Part shown: piece after piece, positions 44,171 through 44,947 of the stretch
Layout of the letters: every line of letters starts with the position of its first letter
How positions within the stretch are numbered: the first letter of the stretch is position 1
Assembly: GCA_031459855.1 (NCBI GenBank)
Contig: JAVKHP010000001.1
Coordinates: 354,059 to 418,058, forward strand
Direction: 5' to 3'
Length of the DNA: 64,000 nucleotides
Source of the DNA: Armatimonadota bacterium
GTDB taxonomy: Bacteria; Sysuimicrobiota; Sysuimicrobiia; Sysuimicrobiales; Humicultoraceae
Program-made: the position numbers and the translations under genes
The notes under the pieces: model-generated
Database searches by the model: none
What the model was told of the DNA's origin: nothing
What the model saw: the letters and a program-made list of their open reading frames with translations, nothing else

Positions 44171-44476
44171 CCCACCCCTGGGCAACTGGCGGATGTTGTA
44201 GCCCAAGGCACGAGGTCAGCTTAGCGCAAGCGTCGCTGCTCCACCGCGGCACACGGCCCGGGTGATGCGTCGCCGGTAGCCATGGCGAGTAATCCCCCGG
44301 GGGCGCGCGGGCACGGGCAGGACCCCGCAGGCGGCTGCAGAACACCAGCCCGCGATTCGATCGCTGTCGGCGATCGCGCGCCACCTTGCCCGAGGAGGGC
44401 GGCGCGCAAATCCGGGAGCGCCCGGCCTGCGGCAGGGCGCTGACCCCATCGGGCAGCCACTGTGAGGGGAGGTCCC

Positions 44477-44947
44477 ATGGCAGACGTCGTGCACCTGTCC
44501 AGGATCCGCGTCTACCAGGAGCAGCGGCCCAAGCGCCGCGCCTACATCGCCGACTTCCCCACGCCGATCTACTTCGGCGTGCACGCCGGCGTCGCGGCCT
44601 TCTACAAGATGACGCCCGAGGAGCCGCTGCCGTCCACGCTCGACTACCTGGTGGCGGCAGCCGCCGGCTGACTCACGGGGACTCTGGCCGGCGCGCTGGA
44701 GGCGCGCGGGATCCCCAGCTACCCCGACCGCCTGTGGGCCGAGGCCGAGGGCACCGTGGCGGCGCCCGAGGGCGTCATGAAGGTCACGCACATCAAGGTG
44801 ACCTACCACCTGACGATCCCTGCGGGCAAGCGGCCGGAGGCCGAGCGCGCGCTGGCGGTCTTCGAGACGCGCTGCCCGGTGGCCCAGACGTTGAAGGGCT
44901 GCGTGACGCTCGAGCACCATGCCGTCATCGACGAGGAGCCGGCGTAG
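44477..44947 (+). CDS. OsmC/Ohr-like protein with in-frame TGA at the reactive cysteine (putative selenoprotein)
   Basis: Read through one TGA, this gives a 156-residue OsmC-family protein. ATG at 44477 has GGGGAGG a few bases upstream. Residues 1-64 end in the helix STLDYLVAAAAG. The TGA at 44669-44671 is codon 65, and the same frame continues LTGTLAGALEARGIPSYPDR through the second domain, with VTYHLTIPAGKRPEAERALA and the conserved ETRCPVAQTLKG (Cys133), to TAG at 44945. In OsmC/Ohr proteins residue 65 is the peroxidatic Cys and the CP motif holds the partner Cys. A hairpin resembling a bacterial SECIS begins 5 nt after the TGA. I infer selenocysteine at 65 and a thiol/selenol peroxidase-type role against organic hydroperoxides. 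Alternatives are a recent nonsense mutation (TGC to TGA) or a sequencing error, but full preservation of the downstream frame argues against decay. It is followed 198 bp later by a NitT-type importer. Confidence 0.85.
44677..44716 (+). promoter_or_regulatory. Putative bacterial SECIS element
   Basis: Starting 5 nt after the in-frame TGA, GGGGA (44677-44681) pairs with TCCCC (44712-44716), CC (44688-44689) with GG (44708-44709), and GCGCGC (44691-44696) with GCGCGC (44702-44707). The apical loop is TGGAG (44697-44701). The loop begins 26 nt after the TGA and has G within its first two positions. Both agree with the published general pattern of bacterial SECIS (short stem-loop, loop roughly 16-37 nt from UGA, early G). 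The GC-rich sequence could also fold otherwise, so this is a by-eye model. Confidence 0.65.

What the first reader, a model, noticed from the sequence alone, without database searches (positions are those of the whole stretch)
44477..44947. OsmC-like protein with TGA in place of the peroxidatic cysteine: probable selenoprotein
A single reading frame from a good ribosome site runs through one TGA to a complete OsmC C-terminus. The TGA is codon 65, in the helix context AAAAG-(TGA)-LTGTLAG where OsmC/Ohr homologues carry the reactive Cys. The partner Cys133 in RCPVAQ is retained. TGA differs from TGC by one base, and nothing else in the gene looks decayed. OsmC-like selenoproteins have been reported from environmental sequence surveys, so selenocysteine is chemically and evolutionarily plausible. 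The neighbouring genes use TGA as a normal stop, so this is local recoding rather than a changed code. It predicts that the genome carries selA, selB, selC and selD.
Basis: partly seen in the sequence, partly recalled or inferred. Interest (0 to 1): 0.93.

Follow-up and report, generated by a model that had tools for sequence, protein, structure and literature searches.

The report
Selenium-containing OsmC protein, a Sec-only subfamily
This gene reads straight through a "stop" codon to put selenocysteine, the 21st amino acid, in place of the reactive cysteine of an OsmC-type redox protein, and it belongs to a widespread bacterial subfamily in which every copy found uses selenium at that position.

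Summary
The frame at 44477-44947 is a complete OsmC domain (Pfam 7e-15) interrupted only by TGA at 44669-44671, which aligns with the catalytic Cys of OsmC/Ohr; the partner Cys133 is kept.

It is very probably a real selenoprotein. All 81 distinct orthologous proteins recovered, from about nine phyla, have TGA at this codon; none has Cys there. A SECIS-type hairpin follows the TGA, with a G-C/A-U compensatory change that couples a synonymous Ala codon to an Ala/Val replacement. Selection (dN/dS) is alike on both sides of the TGA.

OsmC-like selenoproteins are already known (2005 onward; motif UxxT, probably NCBIfam NF041052). This is not a member of that family: it scores 25 bits against a 95-bit cut-off, its motif is UxxGT, and a common Sec clade is rejected (AU p = 0.001). 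It is a separate subfamily that appears to be Sec-only and lies nearer the OsmC peroxiredoxins. I found no description of it in the papers or models I could search. Peroxidase activity is inferred, not shown.

The parts
44466..44472 (+). Shine-Dalgarno-like GGGGAGG, 4 nt before the ATG
   Evidence: Sequence; similar purine-rich motifs precede most orthologues.
44477..44947 (+). OsmC-fold selenoprotein gene, 156 codons including one TGA, stop TAG
   Evidence: AlphaFold2 pLDDT 96.7; Foldseek best hits are OsmC/Ohr structures.
44669..44671 (+). TGA codon 65, read as selenocysteine at the catalytic-Cys position
   Evidence: TGA in all 81 distinct orthologous proteins and in all 35 matches above 60 bits in 386 genomes; aligns to the Cys of 1ukk.
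44691..44707 (+). Putative bacterial SECIS hairpin: GCGCGC / UGGAG loop / GCGCGC; 19 nt separate the UGA from the stem and 25 nt from the loop
   Evidence: 99.1% of pair cells kept in 56 distinct sequences, with G-C to A-U at one pair in 18; codon bias at the stem; fold.
44873..44875 (+). TGC codon for Cys133, the presumed resolving cysteine (motif CP)
   Evidence: Invariant in alignment A1; aligned to the OsmC second Cys.

Best explanation
The gene encodes a selenocysteine-containing OsmC-fold protein. SelB with Sec-tRNA(UCA), recruited by the hairpin just downstream, decodes UGA65 as Sec (strong bioinformatic evidence; not shown biochemically). Sec65 sits in the middle of the central helix, where OsmC/Ohr have the peroxidatic Cys. 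It is expected to attack a peroxide (most likely an organic hydroperoxide) or a similar oxidised substrate and form a selenenic acid, then a selenenylsulfide with Cys133, which is reduced by a dithiol such as dihydrolipoamide (inferred from the OsmC/Ohr family). It is a distinct, apparently Sec-only OsmC subfamily found in Ca. Sysuimicrobiota, Gemmatimonadota, Chloroflexota, Myxococcota and others.
For: Machinery in the same genome: selB over cut-off at C1:2654244-2656115, tRNA-Sec at 2651865-2651956 with anticodon TCA, selA at 2656168-2657523 and selD with a TGA at 1149867-1150790. Conservation of TGA: 87 hits giving 81 distinct proteins, all TGA, none Cys, at 37-85% identity. In 386 genomes all 35 matches above 60 bits have TGA, and the next homologues drop to 44 bits or less with Cys. 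SECIS: a stem with a compensatory change in 18 of 56 sequences against 5.8 expected from shuffles. Ala73 is GCA in 35/35 Gemmatimonadota-type genes (background 7%), paired with Val76 GTG, and GCG in 46/46 others, paired with Ala76 GCG. Purifying selection acts on both sides of the TGA. selA co-occurs with the gene: 19/21 carriers against 21/40 non-carriers, Fisher p = 0.0025. Fold.
Against: No proteomic, 75Se or read-level evidence was available. Folding energy alone is weak: z = -1.25 for the window element, and the sliding codon-shuffle test gives about -1 in two groups and about 0 in the third. One carrier, G232 (98% complete, 210 contigs), shows no selA, selB or tRNA-Sec over cut-off, and G042 (68% complete) shows no convincing set. 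The catalytic Glu of Ohr (10 residues before the Cys) is not conserved, although an invariant Asp sits one residue later, so hydroperoxidase activity is uncertain. Relatedness of the sequences inflates the covariation counts.
Confidence: 0.95

Rival explanations
1. A pseudogene or sequencing error: TGC mutated or was misread as TGA, and the gene is dead or the error is technical.
For: TGA differs from TGC by one base. Many relatives lack the gene.
Against: The same TGA occurs in 81 distinct proteins from independent assemblies with no other lesion, and dN/dS downstream equals upstream.
Confidence: 0.01
2. UGA is read as another residue (Trp, Cys or Gly) through a changed code or a suppressor tRNA, or by programmed read-through unrelated to selenium.
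For: UGA is recoded by other means in some bacteria (general knowledge).
Against: Neighbouring genes end in TGA. The genome has a full Sec set including tRNA-Sec and SelD with TGA. The position is the catalytic Cys, and a codon-constrained hairpin follows.
Confidence: 0.02
3. It is a selenoprotein, but its job is not peroxide reduction. It may instead handle persulfides or other sulfur or selenium electrophiles, or another reaction of the OsmC fold.
For: The -10 Glu of Ohr is replaced and only Asp56 at -9 is invariant. Identity to the best PDB hit is 20%. There is no conserved gene neighbourhood to indicate a substrate.
Against: It is nearest in the tree to generic OsmC proteins of the peroxiredoxin type, and the two-Cys layout is retained as Sec/Cys.
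Confidence: 0.35

Closest known systems
OsmC-like selenoprotein of environmental surveys (PMC1088965, PMC9312934, PMC13188914; motif UxxT), most likely NCBIfam NF041052 OsmC_like_Se
   Same: OsmC fold, Sec at the catalytic-Cys position, bacterial SECIS downstream.
   Different: Motif U-x-x-G-T, not UxxT. The window protein scores 24.8 bits against a cut-off of 95, and other members score at most 36 or not at all. NF041052 includes members without TGA over its cut-off (L154, L155), while this family has none. Holding both Sec groups in one clade is rejected, p-AU 0.0012. That NF041052 is the Sargasso family is inferred from the ULLT motif in its members here.
OsmC peroxiredoxins (TIGR03562; PDB 1ukk, 1nye)
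   Same: Fold, two redox positions, and nearest group in the tree.
   Different: Sec instead of Cys; about 20% identity; the window protein scores 31.7 bits against a cut-off of 85.8.
Ohr organic hydroperoxide resistance proteins (PDB 1n2f, 6ebg)
   Same: Fold and the positions of the two redox residues.
   Different: The Glu ten residues before the catalytic Cys is not present; Asp at -9 is invariant instead.

Membership tests
Bacterial selenoproteins | In-frame UGA conserved in orthologues at a redox Cys position | tested here: met
Bacterial selenoproteins | Host encodes SelA, SelB, SelC (tRNA-Sec) and SelD | tested here: met
Bacterial selenoproteins | SECIS stem-loop immediately downstream with a small apical loop containing G | tested here: met
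   19 nt between UGA and stem, loop UGGAG (or GGA if U-G closes). One of 56 sequences (L036) departs.
Bacterial selenoproteins | Selenium present in the protein | not testable with these tools
   Needs mass spectrometry or 75Se labelling
OsmC superfamily (PF02566) | Score over Pfam gathering cut-off and OsmC fold | tested here: met
   55.7 bits against 27.5
NCBIfam NF041052 OsmC-related (seleno)protein | Score over curated cut-off (95 bits) | tested here: not met
   24.8 bits; other members at most 35.6 bits
NCBIfam NF041052 OsmC-related (seleno)protein | UxxT motif reported for OsmC-like selenoproteins | tested here: not met
   The family has U-[LM]-x-G-[TN]
Ohr/OsmC hydroperoxide reductases | Catalytic Glu 10 residues before the peroxidatic Cys | tested here: not met
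   Leu55 or Val at -10; Asp56 at -9 invariant. The Ohr position is from general knowledge.
Ohr/OsmC hydroperoxide reductases | Thiol-dependent reduction of organic hydroperoxides | not testable with these tools
   Needs an enzyme assay

The most novel reading that the evidence does not exclude
An old OsmC subfamily that is obligately selenium-dependent: it has no Cys form across about nine phyla, arose independently of the known OsmC-like selenoprotein, and has escaped Cys/TGA-pair searches because it has no close Cys homologues.
Probability: 0.75. Interest if true: 0.6.

Novelty: new variant of a known kind. Interest (0 to 1): 0.55.

Why it matters
Most selenoprotein families have many Cys homologues, and homology-based discovery methods rely on Cys/TGA pairs (PMC12013277; PMC1088965). 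A subfamily whose every known member uses Sec is easy to annotate wrongly as two fragments, and it raises the question of what chemistry makes Cys unacceptable. Sec also appears to have entered the OsmC fold more than once, which makes the fold a natural comparison for why selenium is chosen. The Sysuimicrobiota phylum paper does not mention selenium, so this adds selenium use to a little-studied phylum.

Tried and rejected
Conserved operon partners: the neighbours (SDR, ABC transporter genes, glyoxalase-like) are not shared beyond close relatives, so the gene looks stand-alone. Folding energy with codon-synonymous shuffles gave only weak signals, because GC-rich codons fold well anyway, so codon bias and covariation were used instead. 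Read coverage at the TGA was not available. A Pfam call failed on wrong coordinates and was repeated.

Full report
1. The observation. The reading frame starts at ATG 44477 behind GGGGAGG (44466-44472), runs through one TGA at 44669-44671 (codon 65) and ends at TAG 44945-44947. The read-through protein of 156 residues matches Pfam OsmC (PF02566) with 55.7 bits, E = 7e-15, over residues 52-147, that is across the TGA. In alignments with Thermus OsmC (PDB 1ukk), residue 65 falls on the catalytic Cys and residue 133 on the Cys of its CPV motif.

2. It is under selection as one protein. Among 61 genomes (the nearest relatives plus some more distant genomes), all 21 strong matches have one internal TGA, at this codon; L031's extra TAG is its own terminator. 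A scan of 84,980 species genomes returned 66 loci, all with TGA at the same codon and no other break. The peptide patterns used in that scan do not include the codon, so the result is not selected for TGA. In total there are 87 hits and 81 distinct proteins. Comparing the window gene with relatives, dN and dS are alike on both sides of the TGA (for L017: upstream dN 0.11, dS 0.58; downstream dN 0.09, dS 0.70). In alignment A1 the invariant columns include residue 65 and Cys133.

3. The machinery. The window lies in a 3.19 Mb, 97.7% complete genome. It has selB (C1:2654244-2656115, 349 bits, over cut-off), selA immediately beside it (2656168-2657523, 549 bits) and tRNA-Sec nearby (2651865-2651956, 66 bits, anticodon TCA by ARAGORN). 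It also has selD (1149867-1150790, 388 bits), itself with an in-frame TGA. Among the 61 genomes, selA is over its cut-off in 19 of 21 carriers and 21 of 40 non-carriers (Fisher p = 0.0025). One of the two exceptions, G017, has tRNA-Sec at 70.6 bits; the other, G042, is 68% complete. Of 13 carriers in the domain-wide sample, 10 have selA. Of the three without, one has selB over cut-off (G073) and one has tRNA-Sec at 77.6 bits (G115). Only G232 shows none, possibly because it is a fragmented metagenome bin. Five of ten neighbouring genes in the window end in TGA, so the code is not altered.

4. The SECIS element. After a 19-nt spacer behind the TGA, all but one of 56 distinct sequences can form a GCGCGC/GCGCGC-type stem with a UGGAG or UGGAA loop, in keeping with the description of bacterial SECIS elements as having a small apical loop containing G (PMC1088965). 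99.1% of pair cells are standard pairs (slid controls at most 73%), and 18 sequences change both sides of one pair, G-C to A-U (shuffles 5.8 +/- 1.7). The strongest evidence is at codon level. In the Gemmatimonadota-type genes residue 76 is Val (GTG), and the synonymous Ala73 codon is GCA in 35 of 35, although GCA is 7% of their Ala codons. In all 46 other genes residue 76 is Ala (GCG), and Ala73 is GCG in 46 of 46 (background 31-40%). A silent choice that tracks an amino-acid change three codons away is what base pairing in the RNA requires; shared ancestry means the number of independent events is smaller than the counts. Plain folding energy is less telling in this GC-rich DNA (z -1.25).

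5. Structure and function. AlphaFold2 gives mean pLDDT 96.7, and Foldseek's best hits are OsmC/Ohr structures at TM 0.6-0.75. Residue 65 is in the central helix 54-76, and Cys133 lies between helices 119-132 and 134-139. By analogy with OsmC/Ohr (established knowledge), Sec65 would reduce a peroxide and then form a selenenylsulfide with Cys133. This is inferred. A caution is that the Glu that assists catalysis in Ohr, ten residues before the Cys, is not conserved; instead Asp56, nine residues before, is invariant. The gene has no conserved neighbours beyond close relatives, so the context does not name a substrate.

6. Relation to known families. OsmC-like selenoproteins were reported from the Sargasso Sea (PMC1088965) and are listed in reviews with motif UxxT. 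NCBIfam NF041052, 'OsmC-related (seleno)protein', has ULLT in many of its Sec members here and so probably corresponds to that family (inference). The window protein is not a member: it scores 24.8 bits against a 95-bit cut-off and has U-x-x-G-T. In a maximum-likelihood tree its family is one branch (99/94), nearer to generic OsmC proteins of the peroxiredoxin type. Forcing it together with NF041052-type Sec proteins is rejected (p-AU 0.0012), and so is forcing all Sec OsmC proteins together (5.6e-5). Long branches and only 172 columns call for some caution. In 386 genomes every match above 60 bits has TGA and the next, Cys-containing, homologues fall to 44 bits or less. Within this sampling the subfamily is therefore Sec-only.

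7. Distribution and novelty. Hits lie in Ca. Sysuimicrobiota (the window's own order; ANGP1 genomes are placed there by NCBI), Gemmatimonadota, Chloroflexota, Thermomicrobiota, Myxococcota, Acidobacteriota, Actinomycetota, Nitrospinota and Thermodesulfobacteriota; a few record names (L044-L046) disagree with their sequence kinship to Sysuimicrobiota. No paper that I could search describes this subfamily, and the Sysuimicrobiota paper does not mention selenium. Only an open-licence library was searched. I rate it a new variant of a known kind: a solid selenoprotein, a separate Sec-only OsmC lineage, with an unproven substrate.

Noticed in passing
G000:C1:2956520-2956939 (L151, L188): The same genome holds a second, distantly related selenocysteine OsmC protein of the NF041052 type (120 bits, one TGA, context GFU-EGVQ).
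   Followed up: partly
L183, L184, L185, L186: Further OsmC lineages with a TGA at the catalytic position (CAU-INVS, GTU-TAVT, AGU-GLYT), which suggests Sec entered the OsmC fold several times.
   Followed up: partly
G027 and G030 (genus g19): Two related genomes (94% complete) have a TGA-containing selD and Sec-type OsmC, and G027 has a strong tRNA-Sec, but no selA or selB over cut-off: missing contigs or unusual machinery.
   Followed up: partly
G040:C34:4025-8412: A second selA-selB-selD cluster whose selD has no TGA, beside an ordinary set elsewhere in the genome; may be horizontal transfer or contamination.
   Followed up: no
G232: A carrier of the TGA gene with no selA, selB or tRNA-Sec over cut-off at 98% completeness (210 contigs).
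   Followed up: partly
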